From the NCBI GenBank assembly GCA_947497945.1, contig CANMIP010000037.1, positions 1 to 44,025 of the forward strand: a stretch of DNA of 44,025 nucleotides, given 5' to 3'. A model generated the notes under the pieces. The model saw only the letters and a list, made by a program, of their open reading frames with translations, was not told the DNA's origin and did not search any database. The stretch's first letter is position 1. Each line of letters opens with the position of its first letter. This document shows positions 8,789-27,090 of this stretch, piece after piece. This DNA comes from an uncultured Tropicimonas sp. (GTDB lineage: Bacteria > Pseudomonadota > Alphaproteobacteria > Rhodobacterales > Rhodobacteraceae). The position numbers and the translations under genes are program-made.

Positions 8789-9934
8789 GTGGATCTGGAA
8801 GCGCTTGTGCCTGAGTTCTACTTCCCTCCTACGGCTGGAAAGACACCCAATGGAAAGCTGAAGCGGGCCGTCGGCAAGGCGGGGCGCTGGTCAGTGCGCC
8901 GGCGGATGGGTGATGGGCGCTATGCCACCGAGAGCCTAAACGTGCTGGCCGATGACGTGGCACCGGCGAATAACAAGGGCGTACTGTCCTACGATCAGGC
9001 TGTTCGACGCATCCAAGGGATATCGAAGCTGGTCGGTGGTGCCGACATTTCGGTGAAGGATGCCGCGACCGATTGGGCGGATTGGAAAAGCCTGACCGCT
9101 CGCGATCATCGGTCCCGTATCAACTATCGAAGTACCGCCCGCCGGATCGCGGAGGCGTTTCCACGCAAGACGCTTCGCACGATCACTACTGGTGACCTGA
9201 CGCGGTATCGGGACCGCTTCCTTGCGGAAGTGGACCGGGACCGGGACGATTACATGGAGGCGCTCTGCAGGCGCAGATCCACCGCGAACCGGTCACTCGC
9301 CACCGTCAAGGCGGTACTGAACCGTGCTGCCCAAGAACATGGCTATGGAGGTGACCGCGTTTGGAACAACGCAAAGAAGTTCTCAAAGGCCGAGAATTTC
9401 GGATCTCGGCAGAATATCCTCACGCCCGACCAATGTCGGACGCTTTTGATTTCCATCGAGGATGACGCCTTTCGGGATCTCGTGCATATCGCCCTGCTCA
9501 CCGGCTGTCGCTATGGCGAGTTGCGGACGGCCCGTGTTCGGGATCTGGACGTGAGCGCCAAGACGCTCGATGTCGACGGAAAGACCGGTCCGCGTACCAT
9601 CACCATTGGCAACGACGCCTTATCGATCCTTAAGCGGCTTACCGACCGCGTGAACAACAAGCGGCGCTGCATTTTCCTTCGTTCGAATGGGAAGGAATGG
9701 GATCATGACGACCAACAAGACCCGATGTCCGATGCCGTCGAGGCTGCGGGTCTGGAACCCGGCACGGTCTTCTATGATCTGCGTCACACCTGCCTGTCGA
9801 AGTGGATTGCCGATGGCGTTCCAATCCGTGCCGTTGCCGAACAGGCAGGCACCAGCGTCGAGATGTTGGAAAGATCCTACGCGAAGTTCATTCCAGACCA
9901 GAAACAGCAGTGGTTTTCTTCGGGTGCGGTGTAG
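8789..9934 (+). CDS. Tyrosine recombinase/phage integrase
   Basis: The 381-residue protein has the catalytic domain of phage integrases: first Arg in TGCRYGELR (Arg241), second Arg in DLRHTCLS (Arg332) and the nucleophile in MLERSYAKF (Tyr364). The usual His of the H-x-x-R box is Tyr329 and the His ahead of the nucleophile is replaced in EQAGTS, variants that occur in active members, so activity is possible. The core-binding domain is around residues 88-200. The start is uncertain: I use GTG at 8789, but the gene abuts a truncated portal gene in the opposite direction, so its true N-terminus may be lost. Confidence 0.75.
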   Translation: MDLEALVPEFYFPPTAGKTPNGKLKRAVGKAGRWSVRRRMGDGRYATESLNVLADDVAPANNKGVLSYDQAVRRIQGISKLVGGADISVKDAATDWADWKSLTARDHRSRINYRSTARRIAEAFPRKTLRTITTGDLTRYRDRFLAEVDRDRDDYMEALCRRRSTANRSLATVKAVLNRAAQEHGYGGDRVWNNAKKFSKAENFGSRQNILTPDQCRTLLISIEDDAFRDLVHIALLTGCRYGELRTARVRDLDVSAKTLDVDGKTGPRTITIGNDALSILKRLTDRVNNKRRCIFLRSNGKEWDHDDQQDPMSDAVEAAGLEPGTVFYDLRHTCLSKWIADGVPIRAVAEQAGTSVEMLERSYAKFIPDQKQQWFSSGAV

Positions 9935-11322: not shown

Positions 11323-11446
11323 TCCGTGGCAGTTGCCGCCCGTCGCCGCCGACCCGAGCGCCCCCGAGTTCTTCCATCTCGACGCGCTGGATCACGAACT
11401 GACCACCAATCACCGCGCAGCCGACAGCGCATCGGCACGGGAATAA
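11318..11446 (+). pseudogene. Fragment of RecD-like/SF1 helicase
   Basis: In one frame a short stretch reads VDPWQLPPV, then FFHLDALDHELTTNHRAAD. This resembles motif III (GDPxQLPPV) and the following L-T-x-x-x-R region of RecD-like phage helicases, where the two motifs lie about this far apart. It has no start, lacks all other helicase motifs, and stops at 11446. I read it as a deletion remnant; the match is short. Confidence 0.4.
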
Positions 11447-11664
11447 GCTACCTGATCCAGCACTCTGCCGGATCGGGCAAGTCGAACACGATCGGCTGGC
11501 TGGCGCACCAAGCGATCAATCTTCACGACAAAGATGACAACGCCATCTTCAACACCGCGATCATTGTCACCGACCGGATCGTGCTGGACCGTCAGCTTCA
11601 AAGCACTGTCTCGCAGTTTCAGCAGGTAGCCGGTGTCGTGAAGAAGATCGACGGCACCTCTGCC
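11434..11664 (+). pseudogene. Fragment of type I restriction enzyme HsdR
   Basis: The frame encodes about 77 residues closely resembling the motor domain entry of HsdR: SYLIQHSAGSGKSNTIGWLAHQ (Walker A GSGKS), then the DNA-translocase strand AIIVTDRIVLDRQLQ and a VSQFQQVAGVVKKID stretch. HsdR is normally about 1000 residues; nuclease domain, remaining helicase motifs and partner genes hsdM and hsdS are absent. It is fused in frame to an unrelated tail at about 11665. Confidence 0.75.
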
Positions 11665-11751
11665 GTTGTCTTCGACGACAGGGATGCGGTGGTTGCTATG
11701 TGGCGTGAAGAAGGCATCGCTTGCTTTCAAGTCGCGACAGGTGACTTCTGA
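11665..11751 (+). pseudogene. C-terminal tail of a T4 Pnk-like polynucleotide kinase/phosphatase
   Basis: The last 28 codons of the HsdR-fragment frame read VVFDDRDAVVAMWREEG and end CFQVATGDF. This is the typical end of the HAD-type phosphatase domain of T4 polynucleotide kinase relatives (DDRxxVVxMWR, then QVAxGDF at the very C-terminus). The in-frame join to HsdR sequence is therefore an illegitimate fusion. No kinase P-loop domain is present nearby. Confidence 0.55.
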
Positions 11752-11896
11752 TACCCTTGCATTGCGATGATGCTGCACTCTGGATTGGGTGATGATCAGG
11801 CGCACTTTTTGGCATGAGCTACAGCCATTCTCGACAAATAGTGGCGAAATCCGCCCTGCTGTGCAGCGCAAAAACTACGTATGTATATGATTTTGC

Positions 11897-11941
11897 TGGT
11901 GCTGCCGGAGAGATTTGAACTCTCGACCTCTCCCTTACCAA
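11897..11941 (-). repeat. Left attachment repeat (3' fragment of tRNA-Thr)
   Basis: These 45 bases are identical to 27016-27060, the 3' part of the intact tRNA-Thr from the anticodon loop to the encoded CCA. Identity stops abruptly on both sides (c/a at the left edge, a/g at the right), and the 5' half of the tRNA is missing, so this is not a working tRNA but the duplicated attachment site left by integration. The integrase gene starts 185 bases to the right. Confidence 0.93.
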
Positions 11942-12007
11942 AGGCGTGGCGGATGGGGTTAATCGAGTTTCCGGGGTGCTGGAAGGGATGCAAAATCGAT
12001 ACGTGGG

Positions 12008-12125: not shown

Positions 12126-13355
12126 ATGCCTGCCAGAGAACAAGACCGCATCCGGCTAACAGACGCACGTGTGCGCGCCGCAGAACTGCCCGAAGGTAAA
12201 AAGGATTTGTTCCTATGGGATGAAGACTTGCGGGGCTTCGCTCTGCGTCTGCGCGGAAAGGTGAAATCCTACATCGTGGTCTATCGGCCCCAAGGAACAG
12301 GCAGGACAGCGAACCCCAAGAAGCTCAAGCTTGGTACGCCCGAGACCATCCCCAATGTGAAAGAAGCGCGGAACCTGGCGCGGGCGATACTGGGCCGGGT
12401 CGCGGCCGGCGCGGACCCGATCGAGGAACGGAAGGAGGAAAAGCGCAAGTCCACCGTGGCCGTGGGCGCGATGCTGGACCGGTACGAAGCACAACTGAAG
12501 CGGCGCCAACACGTCAAGCGCAAGGACGTGCTGAGCCTGTTGAGGCGCCGGCTGTCGCCCATGCTTCGAAAGGACATTTCCGAACTCAAGGGCTGGGAGT
12601 TGGCCCGGTTGATAGAGAAACTCGACAACGAAGCGGAAGGGCGCGGCAAAGAGTTTCGGGTGCGACTGAACGCCTTTCTGAACTTCTGCACTTTCGACGC
12701 GCGGGTGATCGACGCAAACCCGCTGGCCGGGTATCGCAGAGGCCGTGACACGCGTGCTGAGCGCATAGCAAAGGCCGGGACGGGCAGAGCCCTGTCTGAT
12801 AGCGAACTGGCCTCTGTGTGGCTTGCTGCGAGCCCAGGGACAGCATTCGGGCGGCTTGTGCGGTTCCTGATCCTGACCGGCTGTCGCCGGAACGAAGGCG
12901 CGCAGCTCCAATGGGAAATGGTCGATCTGAGCAACGCCCGGATCGACCTGCCCGCAACGTTCACGAAACAGGGGCGCGGCCACGCGGTTTTTGTCGCTCC
13001 CGCCCTGGGCGAGGTTCTTTCACAATGCACACCCGACAGCCGGGGGCTGGAATGGGTCTTCCCCGCGCCGCGCACGGGCGGCCCCATGTCGGGCTGGACG
13101 CAGCTCATGAAGCGATATTACCGCCGCGACGAAGGCGGCATTGTGTTCACTCTGCACGATCTGCGACGGACGTTTCGCACCGGCCTGTCGCGGCTGGGTG
13201 TCGATCGGGAGATTGCGGAACTCGCGCTGGGCCACGCGCGCGGGGATCTGGAAGCGCGCTACAACAAAGATGAATGCGAGGCGGAGCTGCGAGAGGCGTT
13301 CGATATATGGGCCCGACATGTCATAAAGGAAGTGACGCATGACCCGTCCGGATGA
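12126..13355 (+). CDS. P4-type tyrosine integrase of the element
   Basis: A 409-residue site-specific recombinase that should insert and excise the surrounding element at tRNA-Thr. The N-terminus (residues 8-100) is the DUF4102-type arm-binding domain (LTDARVRAAELPEGKKDLFLWDEDLRGFALRLR). The catalytic residues are all present: Arg254 in TGCRRNEG, His344 and Arg347 in LHDLRRTF, His370 in LGHARGD, and nucleophile Tyr379 in LEARYNKDE. Length is typical for the family. It lies at the left end, just inside the attachment repeat, and overlaps the next gene by 17 bases. Nothing indicates damage, so the element may still be able to move. Confidence 0.95.
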   Translation: MPAREQDRIRLTDARVRAAELPEGKKDLFLWDEDLRGFALRLRGKVKSYIVVYRPQGTGRTANPKKLKLGTPETIPNVKEARNLARAILGRVAAGADPIEERKEEKRKSTVAVGAMLDRYEAQLKRRQHVKRKDVLSLLRRRLSPMLRKDISELKGWELARLIEKLDNEAEGRGKEFRVRLNAFLNFCTFDARVIDANPLAGYRRGRDTRAERIAKAGTGRALSDSELASVWLAASPGTAFGRLVRFLILTGCRRNEGAQLQWEMVDLSNARIDLPATFTKQGRGHAVFVAPALGEVLSQCTPDSRGLEWVFPAPRTGGPMSGWTQLMKRYYRRDEGGIVFTLHDLRRTFRTGLSRLGVDREIAELALGHARGDLEARYNKDECEAELREAFDIWARHVIKEVTHDPSG

Positions 13356-15776: not shown

Positions 15777-18143
15777 ATGGTATACTATAACAACTTCGAC
15801 GAAGTAAACGGTGAAGTGCTGCCCAAGGGCAACCCGGCCGATGTCGCCGTGGAGTTCCTCCGGTGGCTCGATCCGGACGGCACCCACCACCTTGAGGCGT
15901 TCGACCCAACGAAGGACCGCGGCACGCCGCTTTCATGCAAGACGTTCGCCGCTGGTGATTGGGAGGGAATTCGAACCTGGGTGGCCGCTCACGCCGGCCA
16001 CCACAACGTCTATTACATGGCGAACGAGGTTCGCCCGGATCTCGGTAGTGCGTCTGCGGAGAAACACGATATCGTTCAGATCCGCGTGCTTCACGCTGAT
16101 GTCGACCCGCCGAAAGGCGTGGATATCGATACGGCGCGGGAAAACATCCTGCGCACGCTTGCCTCAGCGAAATTCGCATTCAGCGCGGTTGTCGACAGCG
16201 GTGGCGGGTACCAAGCCCTTATGCGCCTCGATAAGAAGCTTGACCACACACACGAAACGCGGAACTGGACCGAGAACCACAATCGGGGTTTTGCAGCCGA
16301 TTACGGTGGCGACGGGGTTTCGAACGTCAATCGCCTGATGCGCCTCCCGGGGCCGGACAATATCCCAACACCGGACAAACGCACGAGAGGGCGCGTGCAA
16401 CGGCCGGCATCGATCGTAACACTCACCCATAGTTATTTCTCCCGTGAACGGATTTCGAACGAGAAGCTTGTTACCCCAATGGAAGCCGGCGTAGGTGGCG
16501 ACAATTCAGAGGAAGTTTGCGAGGCCCGGGATGAAATCCGGTGTTCCGGCTATGACTGCGTTTCCTCGATTGCCGATCTGCCTGAGGAACTGCGAGACCG
16601 CTTCGAAATCGATCTTCTATCGAACGGACCGCTGGCGAAACTATGGGCTGGCGAACCGCCAAAAGGCGGAAACGTCTCCGGATCAGACTACCGTTTCGCG
16701 CTGGCGGGTCGGCTCAAGGCGGTCGGCGGCTACACGGCGGAAGACTTCGCCTTTCTTTGCTACGCGTGGGAGCATTCCGTCGGCGCCGGAAAAGATCAGG
16801 ACGAAAGCCTGACCCTTCGGGAGTTGTCGCGAGCATGGGGCCGGGTGAATGCCGCAAAGCGGCAAGAAGTGAAGGTCGAAGACCACTTAAGCCCTGTTGA
16901 CGACACCAACAACGGCACGACCGAAGACGCCGACATCAAGGTGCAGGAAGCGAAAAGTCGACCGCCTTTCTCATTGCAACTGATCGGTGAGATTGAACCC
17001 AGGCCGCCGGAATATCTGGTAGCCGGATTGATAGAAACGGACTCGCTTGCAGTGGTATTTGGCGAACCCGGGTGCGGGAAGTCCTTCCTGGCCCTGGATA
17101 TTGGTCTATCCGTTGCAACCGGCCACGCGTTCCACTCCCGACCGGTGAAGTCCGGCCCGGTGGTCTACATTGCCGGGGAGGGCCACAGCGGACTTGCACG
17201 CCGCAAGGATGCATGGGCCGCCAGCCGTGCGGTGGATTTGGTAGATGTCCCACTTTGGCTCAGCGGCGGCGCCGCCCAATTTCTTGACGGGGCGTCTCTC
17301 AAGGCTGTTGCCGAAGCTATTGACGGTGTGGCGGAAACCCAGGGTGCGCCGGCTCTGATCGTGATCGACACGCTTGCGCGAAACTTCGGACCGGGTGACG
17401 AGAATGGAACATCGGATATGAGTAAATTCGTTGCGGCCGTCGATCTTGTCCGGCGCCGATACAAAGGGTGCACAGCCCTGATCGTCCACCATAGTGGATT
17501 GATGAACAAAGGCCGAGCCCGCGGCTCCGGAGCGCTTCATGGGGCGAATGACGCAGAGTATCGCGTCGAAAAGAAGGAAGCGGAGATAGGCGTCTTCAAC
17601 ACGCGAATGAAGGACGCACCGCAAAGCGAACCACTCTACTTCCGACTTGAGAGCGTCGATTGCAGCAATGAACACGGACCGTTCTCGAGCGCCGTTCTGA
17701 TCAACACAGCGCCTCAAGCGAAAGCACTGGCACTGAGCGGCACGGAAGCGCTGGGCGCCAAAACGTTGCTTGCCGCCGCAAACGATAGAGGAGATCCAGA
17801 CGCCCCCGTTTCTCTCAAAGCGTGGCGAACGGTCTTCTACGCTCAGCACTCCGGCAAGACGAACGACGGTAAACGAAGAGCCTTCAACCGTGTCCGCAAG
17901 GATCTGGAAGACAAGAGTGTCATCGTTGAGCTTGCGGCAGATGACGGCATAACGGCCTATACCTTTACCCAGGGAGGATTTTCCTTGTGCGGGACAAGCG
18001 GGACAAATGCGGGACATGTCCCGCTTGTCCCGCCTGGGGCGCAACGTTCGGAGCGGGACAAGCGGGACACACCCCTACAGGGGTGTCCGCATGTCCCGCC
18101 CGCAGCGGGTTCTAAGCTGTCTCGGGAAGAGGTTTTCGGATGA
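15777..18143 (+). CDS. Primase-helicase: AEP-like primase fused to RepA/RecA-type ATPase
   Basis: The 788-residue protein probably initiates replication of the element. Residues about 20-230 resemble an archaeo-eukaryotic-type primase: metal-site pair Asp108/Asp110 in LHADVDPP, VVDSGGGYQALMRL at 138-151, and NRLMRLPGPDNIP. Residues about 400-640 form a RecA-fold helicase of the RepA/AAA_25 type: Walker A GEPGCGKS (429-436), YIAGEGHSGL, Walker B LIVIDTLAR (Asp531) and LIVHHSGL. The C-terminal 60 residues are Gly/Pro-rich and are encoded by the GCGGGACA array, which probably constrains the DNA more than the protein. A clear Shine-Dalgarno is lacking. The stop overlaps the next ATG (ATGA). Confidence 0.85.
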   Translation: MVYYNNFDEVNGEVLPKGNPADVAVEFLRWLDPDGTHHLEAFDPTKDRGTPLSCKTFAAGDWEGIRTWVAAHAGHHNVYYMANEVRPDLGSASAEKHDIVQIRVLHADVDPPKGVDIDTARENILRTLASAKFAFSAVVDSGGGYQALMRLDKKLDHTHETRNWTENHNRGFAADYGGDGVSNVNRLMRLPGPDNIPTPDKRTRGRVQRPASIVTLTHSYFSRERISNEKLVTPMEAGVGGDNSEEVCEARDEIRCSGYDCVSSIADLPEELRDRFEIDLLSNGPLAKLWAGEPPKGGNVSGSDYRFALAGRLKAVGGYTAEDFAFLCYAWEHSVGAGKDQDESLTLRELSRAWGRVNAAKRQEVKVEDHLSPVDDTNNGTTEDADIKVQEAKSRPPFSLQLIGEIEPRPPEYLVAGLIETDSLAVVFGEPGCGKSFLALDIGLSVATGHAFHSRPVKSGPVVYIAGEGHSGLARRKDAWAASRAVDLVDVPLWLSGGAAQFLDGASLKAVAEAIDGVAETQGAPALIVIDTLARNFGPGDENGTSDMSKFVAAVDLVRRRYKGCTALIVHHSGLMNKGRARGSGALHGANDAEYRVEKKEAEIGVFNTRMKDAPQSEPLYFRLESVDCSNEHGPFSSAVLINTAPQAKALALSGTEALGAKTLLAAANDRGDPDAPVSLKAWRTVFYAQHSGKTNDGKRRAFNRVRKDLEDKSVIVELAADDGITAYTFTQGGFSLCGTSGTNAGHVPLVPPGAQRSERDKRDTPLQGCPHVPPAAGSKLSREEVFG
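17989..18099. repeat. GCGGGACA iteron-like array, candidate replication origin
   Basis: Eight exact copies of GCGGGACA lie in 111 bases: forward at 17989, 17998, 18009, 18053 and 18062, and inverted at 18017, 18026 and 18092; a 7-base variant TGTCCGC is at 18084. Most neighbours are 9 bases apart. Copies at 18009 and 18017 make the perfect palindrome GCGGGACATGTCCCGC, and a separate hairpin ACACCCC-taca-GGGGTGT lies at 18069-18086. The array sits inside the last codons of the primase-helicase gene, where rep-linked origins of satellites and plasmids are often found. Confidence 0.75.
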
Positions 18144-22909: not shown

Positions 22910-23518
22910 TCAAAAACCTTGTCGGAATTTCTTGACGTTCTCGGAGGTCCAGGGCTTTCCGGTGACGGTTTTACGACCCTGCGCGTTCAACGCAATGGCG
23001 ATACGCGTATTGCTTTCGTGTTCGGCGGCGAGTAGCCGGATCATCGCGGCCAACTCCGCCTTTGAGGTGGGTTTCCCCGCGCTGTGGGCAGCCTGGATAT
23101 CGCGCCAAGCGCGGAAATGCTCGACCGGATCAAAGAACATGCCATCGATCGGCAACGGATCGGGCAGTAGCCAAATAGCTTCGATCCCCTCCCGTTCGAG
23201 GTAGTTGCGCAGCGGCGTGTGTTCCCGCCAACCGAAGGCACTGGCGAATTCGACCAATACTGGCATTGCTCCGGCTTTCTTCCTCGCAACCTCGAAGCTT
23301 TCAACCGCGTGGTCCGACACGCGATCCGGAGCAAGTTCCAGAAACACTTCCTCACCTACCAACTCGCCGCCGTTGCCCTTAGCCCAGCGGCGGACGAGGT
23401 CGCGCTGATAACGGATCGTGCGGCTCTGCGCGGCGGCGGCATCCACATCGGCGGGCAGTTTCGCGAACCCAGCCCAGGCAACCGGCAACGTCCAGTAAAA
23501 TCCAAAGTATCGTTCCAT
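22910..23518 (-). CDS. Serine-recombinase-related protein without recognisable catalytic Ser
   Basis: The 202-residue protein follows the alternating strand-helix order of a resolvase catalytic domain (YFGFYWTLP, SRTIRYQRDLVRRWAKGNGG, ELVGEEVFLELAPDR, a helix, then AMPVLVEFASAFGW and IEAIWLLPD). It ends with the helix pattern that closes large serine recombinases: RIAIALNAQGRKTVTGKPWTSENVKKFRQ. The usual R-x-S nucleophile motif is replaced by the YWTLPVAWAGF region, so I expect no recombinase activity; a DNA-binding regulator is more likely. AAGGAGG lies 7 bases before ATG 23518. It is divergent from the phosphatase/ADP-ribosylglycohydrolase fusion, with only 87 bases between the starts. Confidence 0.5.
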   Translation of the reverse strand: MERYFGFYWTLPVAWAGFAKLPADVDAAAAQSRTIRYQRDLVRRWAKGNGGELVGEEVFLELAPDRVSDHAVESFEVARKKAGAMPVLVEFASAFGWREHTPLRNYLEREGIEAIWLLPDPLPIDGMFFDPVEHFRAWRDIQAAHSAGKPTSKAELAAMIRLLAAEHESNTRIAIALNAQGRKTVTGKPWTSENVKKFRQGF

Positions 23519-23605
23519 TCCAACGTCCTCCTTCGGGGAAAATCCCGACAGATCGCCCGACGCCCCTCAAATCTGCGAAATTGAAGGCATTCAAAGGAGG
23601 CTACC

Positions 23606-25480
23606 ATGACCAACCGTTCCGAAACCACTCTTCCGGACCCGCGCGACCTCTTGTCCGAGGTGGCGGAGGCCGTTCTGATCGCGGGCAGCCTGCTGCGCGC
23701 CGAGGCGCATCGTCCCGCCGGCCCACGCAAGCTTGGTTCCTTCAAGGCGCCCATCGATGACGAGATCGAGGCGTTTCTGAAGGAGCGCCTGCTCAGGCTC
23801 CATCCCTGTGATTGGTGGGGTGAGGAAACGCCACGCCGTCTGTCCGACCACCGGGATGCCTGGGCCGTAGATCCGCAGGATGGCACGCGCGCGTTCCTCA
23901 GGGGCCTGCGCGGCTCCTCCGTTTCGGTCGCTCTAGTGCGCGACGGAGTGCCGGTGCTTGGCATCGTTTATGCCCCGCTTGCGCCCACCGATGACGGCGA
24001 CTTCTTCGCTTGGGCCGAAGGGCTGCCTGCCACTCGCAACGGCGAGGTTCTGGGCGCTATCGGCAACGATGCTCCAGCCTTCTCCTTTGATCCGGACGCC
24101 GAAACACCGTCGATGTGGCCACTTCCAAAGCCAGAGGCACGCGGATACGGGGTCGACACGGTTCTCGCGCTAAACGATCAGGCAGGCAACCATGCCCGGC
24201 ACAATCACGTGGCCTTCCGCCCGGCGCGGGTGCGCGCAGTGCCCTCTATCGCCTGGCGGCTCGCTCTGGCGGCGGCAGGAGAGGTGGATGCCGCCCTTAG
24301 CCTGACGTCTGGCTTGTGCGACTACGACATCGCTGGCGGCCATGCAATCCTGCGCGGGGTCGGCGGCGTTCTGACTGAACTTGGTGGAGAGCCTATTCTC
24401 TATAGTGGCGGGCGCAGCTTCAACGGCTGCATCGGCGGTCCTGAGGCGATCGTGGCCGAGGTTGCACAACGCCGACCCGTCTTCAGCCATGAAAAAAGCC
24501 GCCACGCCGCCCGACCCGCGCGGCTCTGCCCATCTTCGGGCATGCTTGACCGGGCGCAGGGAGTGTTGATGGGCCTTCTGGCGGGTGACGCGCTCGGCTC
24601 AGCGGTCGAGTTCCGCTCGACTAGCGAGATCCTGCGCCTCTACCCGGACGGTGTGCGCGATCTCGCTGATGGCGGAACCTGGAACACCTTTGCGGGCCAG
24701 CCTACGGATGATGGCGAAATGGCGCTGTCGCTGGCACGCTGCCTGGTGGCCGAGGAGCGTTTCGACACCGACGCCGTAGGACGGGCCTATGTTGGCTGGG
24801 GCGCCTCGCGGCCCTTCGACATGGGCGGTACGACAGCAGCGGGGTTGGCTTCACTGGCCGGGCGTGGCCGGAGGAACACTGACAGTCAGTCGAATGGGGC
24901 CTTGATGCGCGTGGCCCCCATTGGCATCTTCGCCGCCGGCCGGCCGGAACTGGCCGCGCGGTTGGCGCGCGAGGATGCGGCCCTGACCCATCCCCATCCA
25001 GTCTGTGTCGCAGCCTCCGGCGCTTATGCCGCGGCCGTTGCTGGAGCGGTTGGAGGCGCCCCGCGTCCGACTGTCTGGGCGCTGGCGCATGCCAATTCTG
25101 GCAAGGGCGAGGGAGGTCAGGCCGTGCGCCGCGCACTCATGCACGCGTTCGGGAGCGACCCATTCGACATGATGCGCAATATGGGTTGGGTGATCCACGC
25201 CTTCACGAACGCCTTCCGCGCACTGGCAATGGACGCCCCTTTGGAGCGTGCGCTGACCGGCACGGTGCGGTTCGGCGGCGACACTGACACCAACGCAGCC
25301 ATCTGCGGTGCCCTGATCGGCGCGGTTCAGGGCCGCTCGGGACTGCCACAGCGTTGGCAGCGCGCGATTCTCACCTGCCGCGCAGTCGATGCGCCGGGCA
25401 TTGCCCATCCGCGTCCGGTCCCATTCTGGCCCGATGACGCACCCGATCTCGCCGAGGCGTTGCTGGCCGCTGGAGCCTGA
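23606..25480 (+). CDS. Fusion of inositol-monophosphatase-like and ADP-ribosylglycohydrolase domains
   Basis: A 624-residue two-domain enzyme. Residues 10-290 have the motifs of the IMPase/CysQ superfamily: WWGEET (Glu73/Glu74), VDPQDGT (89-94, with flanking WA) and CDYDIAGGHAIL (Asp239, Asp241), so all Mg-binding positions seem present. Residues 313-623 are an ADP-ribosylglycohydrolase (DraG/ARH type): GVLMGLLAGDALGSAVEF, metal-binding PTDDGEM (367-371), NGALMRVAPIG, and GGDTDTNAAICGALIGA (557 onward). The first domain removes phosphate from nucleotide- or inositol-type substrates; the second hydrolyses ADP-ribose linkages from proteins, DNA or small molecules. Together they suggest stepwise processing of a phosphorylated ADP-ribose compound, which is inference. 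A strong AAGGAGG precedes ATG 23606. Confidence 0.9.
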   Translation: MTNRSETTLPDPRDLLSEVAEAVLIAGSLLRAEAHRPAGPRKLGSFKAPIDDEIEAFLKERLLRLHPCDWWGEETPRRLSDHRDAWAVDPQDGTRAFLRGLRGSSVSVALVRDGVPVLGIVYAPLAPTDDGDFFAWAEGLPATRNGEVLGAIGNDAPAFSFDPDAETPSMWPLPKPEARGYGVDTVLALNDQAGNHARHNHVAFRPARVRAVPSIAWRLALAAAGEVDAALSLTSGLCDYDIAGGHAILRGVGGVLTELGGEPILYSGGRSFNGCIGGPEAIVAEVAQRRPVFSHEKSRHAARPARLCPSSGMLDRAQGVLMGLLAGDALGSAVEFRSTSEILRLYPDGVRDLADGGTWNTFAGQPTDDGEMALSLARCLVAEERFDTDAVGRAYVGWGASRPFDMGGTTAAGLASLAGRGRRNTDSQSNGALMRVAPIGIFAAGRPELAARLAREDAALTHPHPVCVAASGAYAAAVAGAVGGAPRPTVWALAHANSGKGEGGQAVRRALMHAFGSDPFDMMRNMGWVIHAFTNAFRALAMDAPLERALTGTVRFGGDTDTNAAICGALIGAVQGRSGLPQRWQRAILTCRAVDAPGIAHPRPVPFWPDDAPDLAEALLAAGA

Positions 25481-25537
25481 TCGGTGAAACTGCCGATCGG
25501 TTCCCGTGCCGACCGTCCCAGAATACATGAGGAAGCC

Positions 25538-25738
25538 ATGCACGATGCCGTACCTGCCAATGCACACCTTGGGAAACAGCGGCGCATCCTAACCAAGGCA
25601 GTGGCCCTCTTGACCACCATCAACGGAGTGGAAGCACGCCTAACCGCCGCTGACGCCACCTGCACCGACCGCCTCGAAGCCCTGCTTCACGGGCGACTCG
25701 TGCCGATCATTGTCCAAAACAAGGAGATTTCAGAATGA
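25538..25738 (+). CDS. Small protein between fusion enzyme and winged-helix protein
   Basis: Unrecognised 66-residue protein, start ATG 25538 with GAGGAA about 5 bases upstream; a GTG at 25484 would give 84 residues. Its C-terminus is helical (ILTKAVALLTTINGVEARL, then DRLEALLHGRLVPIIVQNK). The stop overlaps the ATG of the next gene (ATGA). Size, position and coupling would suit a regulator, antitoxin or complex partner, but nothing in the sequence proves it. Confidence 0.5.
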   Translation: MHDAVPANAHLGKQRRILTKAVALLTTINGVEARLTAADATCTDRLEALLHGRLVPIIVQNKEISE

Positions 25739-26490
25739 GTGCGCTTTACAAGGATTCCCCCGAAGTGGTCGAGTTCATGAGATTGTTTTCACAACTGAAG
25801 GAGTGGTCCGACGACGACGCCGCTGGACCCGGTGACTTCGCCCCCCGTAACGAGAGCATCAAGAATCTCTGTGTTGAGGTTTCTTCTGCAGGCACCCTCC
25901 TCACAAGAAACGAGCGCCAGTCGCGGGAGTTATTCGCCGCACCTGTCGATCCGGCCTTTCTGTCCGCCTGGCGCGAGTATGAGGAGCGCTACAAATCTGT
26001 TCTGTCCTGGATCTGGCTTTCTGAATTTCGCCCTTGGCCTGAGCCATCCGAACCAAGCCGCGTGTCAAAGGCGGATTTGCAATGGCGCAACGCGGATGAC
26101 GAGGCGTCCGGGCAGACCAGGGCTATTGAGGAAGTGATCGATTTCGCGCAGGACAATGCCGGTTCTGCCGAGTCGTTAGAGGTAAAAAGCTCCGAAAAGA
26201 CCCCGGGTCAAACATCTGAGAAGGAGACTCCAATGGGAAAGATTCGCTGGGTAGATGACGTGTTCGAAGCAATCCGGAGACTCGGAGGCAGTGCGACTCT
26301 GCATTCGATCTACAAGGAAGTGGAGAATATCCGCCGGAAGGCTGGGCGGTCAGTTCCTAAGACGCTGGAGGCAACTATCAGGCGGACACTCGAAGATCAC
26401 TCGTCTGACTCAGCCAATTATCGTGGGACCGACCTTTTCGCCAACATTGGACGAGGTGAATGGGCAATCCGGCAGGATCGTCGCGCCTAG
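25735..26490 (+). CDS. Protein with C-terminal winged-helix domain of restriction/HNH-associated type
   Basis: The 251-residue protein has an unassigned N-terminal helical domain (residues 1-110), a charged linker (about 120-165) and a C-terminal winged helix from residue 167: IRWVDDVFEAIRRLGGSATL, a YKEVENIRRK helix, TLEATIRRTLEDHSSDSANYRG and the closing strand LFANIGRGEWAIR. The C-terminal pattern (W-V-x-D-V...ATIRRTLEDHSSDS...G-x-W) is one I know from DNA-recognition domains next to restriction endonucleases. An internal ATG at 26233, with AAGGAG 6 bases upstream, would give the winged helix alone (85 residues). It is coupled to the small gene before it. Confidence 0.65.
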   Translation: MSALYKDSPEVVEFMRLFSQLKEWSDDDAAGPGDFAPRNESIKNLCVEVSSAGTLLTRNERQSRELFAAPVDPAFLSAWREYEERYKSVLSWIWLSEFRPWPEPSEPSRVSKADLQWRNADDEASGQTRAIEEVIDFAQDNAGSAESLEVKSSEKTPGQTSEKETPMGKIRWVDDVFEAIRRLGGSATLHSIYKEVENIRRKAGRSVPKTLEATIRRTLEDHSSDSANYRGTDLFANIGRGEWAIRQDRRA

Positions 26491-26572
26491 GACATATGAG
26501 TTGCTGCCTGCGGGGGGTAAGCCCTCGCAGGCGCTCGCGCCGAACAGCATAGAAATTGTGATGGAGGCGATA

Positions 26573-26761
26573 ATGCGGAAATACCGGAACGAACTGAAAA
26601 GCGTGATATCGGCCGAGGGCCTCACGATAAATGATGTCAGGGTCGGCAGGCACATCAAGATCATTTGCGAGGAAGGGTGCATTACCGCTTCAAAGACACC
26701 TGGCGATTGGCGCAATATGCGAAACATCCGGTCGCAGGCTCGGCGAATGCGCGGTGGGTAG
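26573..26761 (+). CDS. Small basic protein, possibly HicA-like
   Basis: A 62-residue protein, start ATG 26573 with GGAGG five bases upstream. The sequence runs helix (MRKYRNELKSVISAEGLTIN), two strands (VRVGRHIKIICEEGCITAS), then TPGDWRNMRNIRSQARRM. This order, with a (S/T)-P-x-D-x-R-x-x-x-N-x-R ending, recalls the double-stranded-RNA-binding-like fold of HicA toxins and small phage relatives, though the HicA catalytic His is not in its usual context. No HicB-type partner follows. It is the last gene before the right end; 26762-26925 holds nothing that I recognise. Confidence 0.45.
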   Translation: MRKYRNELKSVISAEGLTINDVRVGRHIKIICEEGCITASKTPGDWRNMRNIRSQARRMRGG

Positions 26762-26945: not shown

Positions 26946-27015
26946 AGGAGGAATTTCCAGAGACGCTACGAACGACGCTAGCACTGGCAAATTACTGATA
27001 TATCTAGAGATTTTA

Positions 27016-27090
<75 letters not shown>

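What the first reader, a model, noticed from the sequence alone, without database searches (positions are those of the whole stretch)
22910..26761. Phosphatase/ADP-ribosylglycohydrolase fusion in a compact cargo module
A full IMPase/CysQ-like domain and a full DraG/ARH-type domain share one 624-residue chain, each with its metal-binding motifs intact. The gene faces a recombinase-like protein without an obvious nucleophile across 87 bases, both with near-perfect Shine-Dalgarno sites, and is followed by two coupled genes, the second with a winged helix of the kind found beside restriction enzymes. On a satellite-like element such cargo often protects against phage or blocks host defence. A scheme in which one domain dephosphorylates and the other removes ADP-ribose (from DNA, protein or an NAD-derived signal) is conceivable. 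I do not know a described system of this composition.
Basis: partly seen in the sequence, partly recalled or inferred. Interest (0 to 1): 0.78.

Follow-up and report, generated by a model that had tools for sequence, protein, structure and literature searches.

The report
Phosphatase–ADP-ribosylhydrolase fusion with dead-recombinase partner
A mobile bacterial DNA element carries an enzyme that joins a phosphatase to an ADP-ribose remover, paired with a gene resembling a dead DNA recombinase that probably acts as its genetic switch; relatives of the pair often sit among anti-virus genes, so it may undo chemical tags that viruses or rival toxins put on cell molecules.

Summary
ORF 23606-25480 (+) fuses an IMPase-like phosphatase to a DraG/ARH domain, with metal-ligand motifs invariant in 18 of 18 aligned fusions, the window included. 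The divergent gene 22910-23518 (-), REC, is the linked partner. Of 21 loci that searches with REC alone returned, 20 have an ARH gene or its pieces alongside; L041 keeps only an IMPase stub. A prediction written first held in 10 of 10 intact loci. The two downstream genes occur in none of the other loci. A 13-bp motif (CGGAAAATCCCGA) lies between the genes with at most 2 mismatches in 30 of 32 REC loci, against 63 of 9848 control stretches, and in 0 of 5 REC-less fusions. The ARH partner varies in 28 intact loci: IMPase fused (22), PTP fused (1), ARH alone (5; beside UDG, metallophosphoesterase or a GIY-YIG-like gene). Neighbours are rich in defence families. ARG-phosphatase systems were predicted in 2022 (PMC9503650); the IMPase version and a recombinase-like regulator are not in its main text (figures and supplement not seen). 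Best reading: an inducible ADP-ribosylation eraser on a 15-kb tRNA-Thr element.

The parts
22910..23518 (-). REC: degenerate serine-recombinase-like protein (202 aa), putative operator-binding regulator
   Evidence: Pfam Recombinase (DNA-binding) in 12 of 13 members at E <= 0.1, resolvase catalytic domain listed for none; Pro where Ser would be, invariant in A2 (register with resolvases read by eye); AF2 model pLDDT 89, best Foldseek hit a serine integrase but weak, E 0.042
23536..23548 (+). Conserved intergenic motif, consensus CGGAAAATCCCGA (window copy GGGAAAATCCCGA), next to the REC ribosome-binding site; putative operator
   Evidence: <=2 mismatches in 30 of 32 REC loci; 63 of 9848 control stretches; 0 of 5 REC-less fusion loci
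23606..25480 (+). IMPase-ARH fusion, 624 aa
   Evidence: AF2 model pLDDT 87.5, pTM 0.90, Foldseek hits DraG and SuhB/IMPase
23666..24406 (+). Inositol monophosphatase-like domain (residues 21-267)
   Evidence: Pfam PF00459 E 6.6e-27; NCBIfam best HisN and CysQ, all far below cut-off
24560..25354 (+). ADP-ribosylglycohydrolase (DraG/ARH) domain (residues 319-583)
   Evidence: Pfam PF03747 E 8.1e-64; PDB best DraG E 1.2e-25
11892..11948 (+). Left att-like repeat (copy of tRNA-Thr 3' part)
   Evidence: 57 nt, 93% identical to 27011-27067
12126..13355 (+). Tyrosine integrase with Arm-DNA-bind_3 domain, next to the left repeat
15777..18143 (+). Primase/helicase-like replication protein of the carrying element
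   Evidence: Pfam AAA_25; PHROG DNA polymerase/primase E 1.1e-44
27011..27067 (+). Right att-like repeat, within tRNA-Thr (27016-27090, -) but for its first 5 bases
25484..25738 (+). 84-aa ORF downstream; NOT part of the conserved module
   Evidence: only in the window's own copies among 111 loci
25735..26490 (+). 251-aa ORF downstream; NOT part of the conserved module
   Evidence: only in the window's own copies among 111 loci; no Pfam, PADLOC, PHROG or NCBIfam match

Best explanation
A two-gene, self-regulated ADP-ribosylation eraser carried on mobile or defence-rich DNA. Shown: REC and an ARH gene are divergent neighbours and share a 13-bp intergenic motif; the ARH is mostly fused to a phosphatase. 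Inferred: REC is a serine recombinase that lost its nucleophile and now only binds DNA. It binds CGGAAAATCCCGA between the two genes and keeps the pair low. A signal linked to ADP-ribosylation relieves this. The ARH domain then removes ADP-ribose from a macromolecule modified by a phage or rival-toxin ADP-ribosyltransferase. The phosphatase (IMPase here; PTP or metallophosphoesterase elsewhere) removes a phosphomonoester at the same lesion or on the released product, sometimes helped by a Nudix enzyme. Which phosphate is unknown: ADP-ribose itself has no phosphomonoester, so the candidates are AMP and ribose-5-phosphate after Nudix cleavage, a phosphate end freed by the ARH, or ADP-ribose-1''-phosphate.
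For: REC-only searches: ARH or its pieces beside REC in 20 of 21 loci (searches; partners); the prediction for the 10 intact loci of the last search was written first and held in 10 of 10. Motif in 30 of 32 loci, whichever enzyme is downstream, and in 0 of 5 REC-less fusions. REC and fusion distances correlate over 15 loci (r 0.56, 0 of 5000 permutations as high). Two of the 5 REC-less fusion loci have WYL regulators upstream, a type the 2022 paper ascribes to these systems. Unrelated phosphatases replace each other beside ARH. Nudix downstream in L014, L017, L018, L027 and the decayed L110. Around 18 REC loci 120 neighbour proteins hit 144 PADLOC families, 109 control proteins 3. ARH-like and macrodomain enzymes are reported to act on phosphate-end ADP-ribosylated RNA (PMC11833690, section 18).
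Against: No activity, binding or phage test exists. Five of 28 intact REC loci have ARH without a fused phosphatase; three have UDG and one a GIY-YIG-like gene instead, and no phosphatase was recognised beside these four, so a phosphatase is not obligatory. REC of L028 and L058 ends without the usual C-terminal helices. REC structure match to serine recombinases is weak (E 0.042). Inside the window alone the motif is not exceptional: 5 matches at <=2 mismatches against 2.2 expected; its weight comes from position and conservation. A looser control (both strands, true sites not removed) gave 96 of 3000. Two REC loci miss it: L011 (3 mismatches) and the decayed L111 (4). A second exact 12-mer lies elsewhere in the own genome. 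The motif could be a promoter or host-factor site. PADLOC counts are families, of which 25 of 144 were shown, nearly all hit by one protein each; Pfam also lists plainly metabolic neighbours.
Confidence: 0.5

Rival explanations
1. Nucleic-acid repair reading: the module mends ADP-ribosylated DNA or RNA (DarT-like lesions); UDG, GIY-YIG-like and phosphatase partners are alternative end-processing enzymes.
For: UDG beside REC-linked ARH in 4 loci (L056, L101, L104, L108); a GIY-YIG-like ORF directly after ARH in L109 (motif recalled, no family search); a close ARH-only relative in viral contig L047 sits with DarT, Mrr and McrBC genes; ARH-like enzymes remove ADP-ribose from nucleic-acid phosphate ends.
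Against: 22 of 28 intact REC loci have IMPase, not a DNA enzyme; the UDG looks divergent and one of them (L104) found no PDB relative; no DarT was seen next to REC loci, but not every neighbour was named.
Confidence: 0.22
2. Small-molecule signal degradation: the two domains destroy an NAD-derived or phosphorylated ADP-ribose signal (counter-defence or self-protection).
For: Cargo of a mobile element; phosphatase plus glycosidase plus Nudix fits breakdown of a nucleotide; SIR2 gene near L056; one full fusion with REC in an IMG/VR contig (L043).
Against: The 2022 survey argues that ARG domains prefer macromolecular adducts (PMC9503650); no fusion covering 80% of the query in 50,697 phage records.
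Confidence: 0.13
3. Metabolic gene of the element without role in conflict (nucleotide or inositol-phosphate salvage).
For: IMPase family is mostly metabolic (recalled); NCBIfam best phosphatase matches are HisN and CysQ; some loci have metabolic neighbours.
Against: Sporadic presence (REC in 3 of 248 family and 12 of 390 order genomes, own included), defence-rich neighbours, REC linkage.
Confidence: 0.1
4. REC is a third enzyme (for instance a DNA-end or adduct sensor) rather than a transcription regulator, and the motif is its own promoter.
For: Catalytic-like N-terminal part kept with a strict new motif YWTxP.
Against: Divergent layout, motif conserved with different downstream genes, no motif where REC is absent.
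Confidence: 0.15

Closest known systems
ARG-centric systems predicted to counter viral ADP-ribosylation (PMC9503650, Viruses 2022, section 3.8)
   Same: ARG/ARH domain with a phosphatase in the same chain or next gene; Nudix; restriction and other defence neighbours; WYL regulators in two REC-less fusion loci
   Different: Phosphatases named there are rhodanese-phosphatase, calcineurin-like, HD and HAD; IMPase and a recombinase-like regulator are not in the main text (figures and supplement not seen)
DraT-DraG
   Same: ARH domain is closest in PDB to DraG (E 1.2e-25)
   Different: Not equivalog level (129.6 of 337 bits); fused phosphatase, other context
Tri1 toxin / ADP-ribosylarginine hydrolase immunity pair
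   Same: ARH fold used against an ADP-ribosylating toxin (6dre hit)
   Different: No toxin gene beside it was recognised; below NCBIfam cut-off (92 of 490 bits)
DarTG
   Same: Reversal of ADP-ribosylation in phage conflict; DarT sits near a close ARH-only relative in viral contig L047
   Different: Macro or NADAR antitoxin there; no DarT seen next to REC loci
Serine recombinases
   Same: C-terminal Recombinase DNA-binding domain in 12 of 13
   Different: No catalytic serine by my alignment; resolvase domain listed for 0 of 13

Membership tests
ARG-centric anti-ADP-ribosylation systems (PMC9503650) | ARG/ARH domain | tested here: met
   ARH in 28 of 28 intact REC loci (in L057 by the record's annotation)
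ARG-centric anti-ADP-ribosylation systems (PMC9503650) | Phosphatase in same chain or adjacent gene (over 55% there) | tested here: met
   window and 24 of 28 loci (22 IMPase, 1 PTP, 1 metallophosphoesterase); none recognised in 4 (L056, L104, L108, L109)
ARG-centric anti-ADP-ribosylation systems (PMC9503650) | Nudix or WYL transcription factor (over 42% there, not in every system) | tested here: not met
   window has neither next to the fusion; REC takes the place; WYL in 2 of 5 REC-less fusions, a Nudix gene (not shown to be a regulator) in 4 loci
ARG-centric anti-ADP-ribosylation systems (PMC9503650) | No coupled ADP-ribosyltransferase or sirtuin | tested here: inconclusive
   none in the first 25 of 128 Pfam families of 120 neighbours, the rest not shown; a SIR2 gene near L056
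ARG-centric anti-ADP-ribosylation systems (PMC9503650) | Removes ADP-ribose in vivo and protects from phage | not testable with these tools
   a prediction in the paper too
DraG/ARH hydrolases | Binuclear metal motifs | tested here: met
   invariant in 18 of 18; roles of the residues recalled
IMPase superfamily | EE, DxxDGT and late D metal ligands | tested here: met
   invariant in 18 of 18; roles of the residues recalled
CysQ / HisN / SuhB (named IMPase subfamilies) | Equivalog score | tested here: not met
   all below a quarter of cut-off
Serine recombinase (active) | Catalytic resolvase domain with Ser nucleophile | tested here: not met
   resolvase domain listed for 0 of 13 members; Pro at that place
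Integrative element at a tRNA (P4-like satellites considered) | Integrase at tRNA, flanking att-like repeat, replication gene | tested here: met
   empty site not proven
Integrative element at a tRNA (P4-like satellites considered) | Packaging by a helper phage | not tested
   no test made

The most novel reading that the evidence does not exclude
A mobile ADP-ribosylation repair switch in which a dead serine recombinase is both operator-binding repressor and sensor of ADP-ribosylated nucleic acid or its breakdown products, driving interchangeable repair enzymes (ARH with IMPase, PTP, metallophosphoesterase, UDG or a GIY-YIG-like nuclease): a new class of regulator and a new phosphatase for the predicted ARG systems.
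Probability: 0.25. Interest if true: 0.82.

Novelty: new variant of a known kind. Interest (0 to 1): 0.62.

Why it matters
It gives the computationally predicted ADP-ribosylation-countering systems a concrete, two-gene, testable form with a defined candidate operator. It shows that very different phosphatases stand beside the same ARH-REC pair. It also suggests that a recombinase can lose catalysis and become the switch of a defence cargo. The open question of how bacteria undo phage or toxin ADP-ribosylation becomes directly assayable.

Tried and rejected
Downstream genes 25484-25738 and 25735-26490 as module members: rejected, found only in the window's own copies among 111 loci (first seen). 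PADLOC and PHROG names: none for fusion or REC in PADLOC, none for REC in PHROGs (the fusion was not scanned there). Sequence search of REC against PDB: nothing relevant. Empty-site comparison with a same-genus genome: the murA side aligns, the left flank does not, so no clean empty site was shown. Whether IMPase-linked REC forms one clade: tree not resolved. UDG protein of L104 against PDB: no hit. Second exact motif copy in the own genome: lies inside long open stretches (545 and 694 codons), taken as chance.

Literature: 10 searches. Zero papers for ADP-ribosylglycohydrolase + inositol monophosphatase + fused (43), ADP-ribosylglycohydrolase + IMPase (48), inositol monophosphatase + ADP-ribosyl + phage defense (104), ADP-ribosylglycohydrolase + 'recombinase family protein' (105). 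The library holds open-licence papers only; supplements could not be read.

Dropped before counts: of 140 neighbour proteins listed I gave 120 to the scans (50,000-residue limit, farthest ones of each locus dropped); the 18 loci used leave out L013 and the later L100-L111. Control: 109 proteins from 8 arbitrary regions of 3 genomes; 2 of 10 requested regions did not exist. Gene calls there come from a crude script. Loci that are the same place were counted once in the 32: L035/L039/L073, L033/L036/L072, L042/L043/L083, L041/L082. Of the 32, 28 have open REC and ARH frames; L041, L073, L110 and L111 are broken.
Full report
What is there. ORF 23606-25480 (+) encodes 624 residues with an inositol-monophosphatase-like domain (21-267) and an ADP-ribosylglycohydrolase domain (319-583). 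Seventeen other fusions align over both domains at 39-58% identity to the window protein, and both sets of metal-binding motifs are invariant in all 18. The AlphaFold2 model is good (pLDDT 87.5, pTM 0.90); Foldseek matches one half to DraG and the other to SuhB/IMPase. By sequence, the ARH half is nearest DraG among solved structures. NCBIfam does not place the phosphatase half: HisN and CysQ score best but far below their cut-offs.

The divergent gene. 22910-23518 (-), called REC here, lies 87 bp away. At E <= 0.1, 12 of 13 relatives match the Recombinase DNA-binding domain of Pfam; the resolvase catalytic domain is listed for none. The YARVS motif of resolvases is replaced by YWTLP, so proline stands where the serine nucleophile would be (the register with resolvases is my reading). 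Its model (pLDDT 89) finds a serine integrase first in the PDB, but weakly (E 0.042).

Linkage. Among 18 full-length fusions, 13 have REC divergent next to them and 5 (L015, L016, L025, L029, L032) do not. To avoid circularity I also searched with REC alone. A family sample gave 3 of 248 genomes, a class sample 1 of 385 (the own genome only) and an order sample 12 of 390, own included each time; plasmids gave 5 records and viral contigs 2 loci (a second viral scan gave the same two contigs). Without the own genome this makes 21 loci. Twenty have an ARH gene or pieces of one on the other side; L041 keeps only an IMPase stub, interrupted by other DNA. In three of the 20 (G225, G1151, G1152) the ARH is in pieces. 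For the ten intact loci of the order sample I wrote the prediction first: ten of ten had the divergent ARH and the motif. REC and fusion sequence distances correlate over 15 loci (r 0.56, 0 of 5000 permutations as high).

Partners. In 28 intact REC loci the ARH is fused to IMPase in 22 and to a PTP-type phosphatase in 1 (Cereibacter plasmid). It stands alone in 5: with a metallophosphoesterase next to it (Paracoccus marcusii), with a UDG-superfamily gene (L056, L104, L108), or with a GIY-YIG-like gene (L109, motif recalled). A Nudix gene follows in L014, L017, L018 and L027 and in the decayed L110, and UDG also follows one IMPase fusion (L101). So ARH is the constant enzyme and a phosphatase the usual, not obligatory, companion. 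The window's two downstream ORFs occur in no other locus held here.

Motif. The intergenic DNA holds CGGAAAATCCCGA, on the same strand, with at most 2 mismatches in 19 of 20 loci of the first set (10 exact) and 11 of 12 of the second (9 exact). The misses are L011 (3 mismatches) and the decayed L111 (4). Of 9848 control stretches of equal length from the same loci 63 reach this (0.6%); a looser control on both strands with true sites left in gave 96 of 3000. Within the window alone the motif is unremarkable (5 matches at two mismatches, 2.2 expected). Information content is 0.8-1.9 bits over the core and mostly 0.0-0.5 around it. The five REC-less fusions have 4-5 mismatches at best. In the window the motif (23536-23548) stands next to the ribosome-binding site of rec. 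The motif stays the same when the downstream enzyme changes, which points to REC as its reader. This is inference; a promoter element or host factor is not excluded.

Setting. The module is cargo of an element bounded by a 57-nt, 93% identical repeat of tRNA-Thr at 11892-11948 and 27011-27067, with an integrase next to the left copy and a primase/helicase gene. A same-genus genome (G007) lacks REC and fusion and aligns on the murA side of the tRNA only, so the empty site is not proven; another of the genus (G1262) has two REC loci. Around 18 REC loci, 120 neighbour proteins hit 144 PADLOC families at E 1e-10; among the 25 shown are Wadjet JetA, Septu PtuA, SIR2, SoFic, DISARM, Lamassu and type IV restriction models. 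109 control proteins hit 3 families, all of the mads set. Families are not proteins and most were hit by one protein, so the ratio is only a guide; Pfam shows metabolic neighbours too, with integrases and transposases.

Known before. PMC9503650 (section 3.8 read in full; other passages seen) predicts host systems built on an ARG domain coupled to a phosphatase, often under Nudix or WYL regulators, to reverse phage ADP-ribosylation. The present module fits that idea. REC-less fusions in L025 and Pseudomonas luteola even carry WYL regulators upstream. New relative to that text are the IMPase phosphatase, the degenerate recombinase with its motif, and the UDG and GIY-YIG-like companions; figures and supplement were not seen. 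PMC11833690 (abstract, passages and section 18) shows ARH-like enzymes acting on phosphate-end ADP-ribosylated RNA. PMC12255303 (passages) describes a different repressor of a defence island. PMC13092281 was seen in passages only.

Mechanism. Free ADP-ribose has no phosphomonoester, so the phosphatase cannot simply follow the ARH. It needs a Nudix step first, or a phosphate at the lesion itself. That unrelated phosphatase folds stand in the same place says that the reaction, not the fold, is selected. UDG and GIY-YIG-like partners in loci where no phosphatase was recognised hint at nucleic-acid lesions, where the 2022 paper favours proteins. I rate an inducible eraser at 0.5 overall, with the nucleic-acid version as main rival.

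Noticed in passing
L047 1-9506 (viral contig; L053 and L054 alike in gene lengths): A close ARH-only relative lies in one cluster with a UvrD-like helicase, DarT, a second ARH fused to a glyoxalase domain, a HARE-HTH/Mrr nuclease, AAA_5 and McrBC genes; in L054 a REase-ARP gene follows the ARH. Families were scanned in L047 only, plus one gene each of L053 and L054. Possibly an ADP-ribosylation-coupled restriction system.
   Followed up: partly
L014 9697-10998, L017 8930-10231, L027 11338-12084: The Nudix protein after the fusion carries, or is followed by, a conserved 245-aa domain without Pfam match beginning EKWFAWFDGS.
   Followed up: no
L105 6596-8815: Fusion with an extra N-terminal stretch of well over 100 residues before the IMPase domain.
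   Followed up: no
window 8789-9934 and 11326-11751: A second tyrosine integrase and a fragment that looks like a type I restriction helicase (by eye) just left of the element, so the left flank is probably another mobile region.
   Followed up: no
L028 8195-8770, L058 6998-7576: REC of these two plasmids ends in unrelated residues where others have the C-terminal DNA-binding helices; decay or frame change.
   Followed up: no
   Followed up: partly
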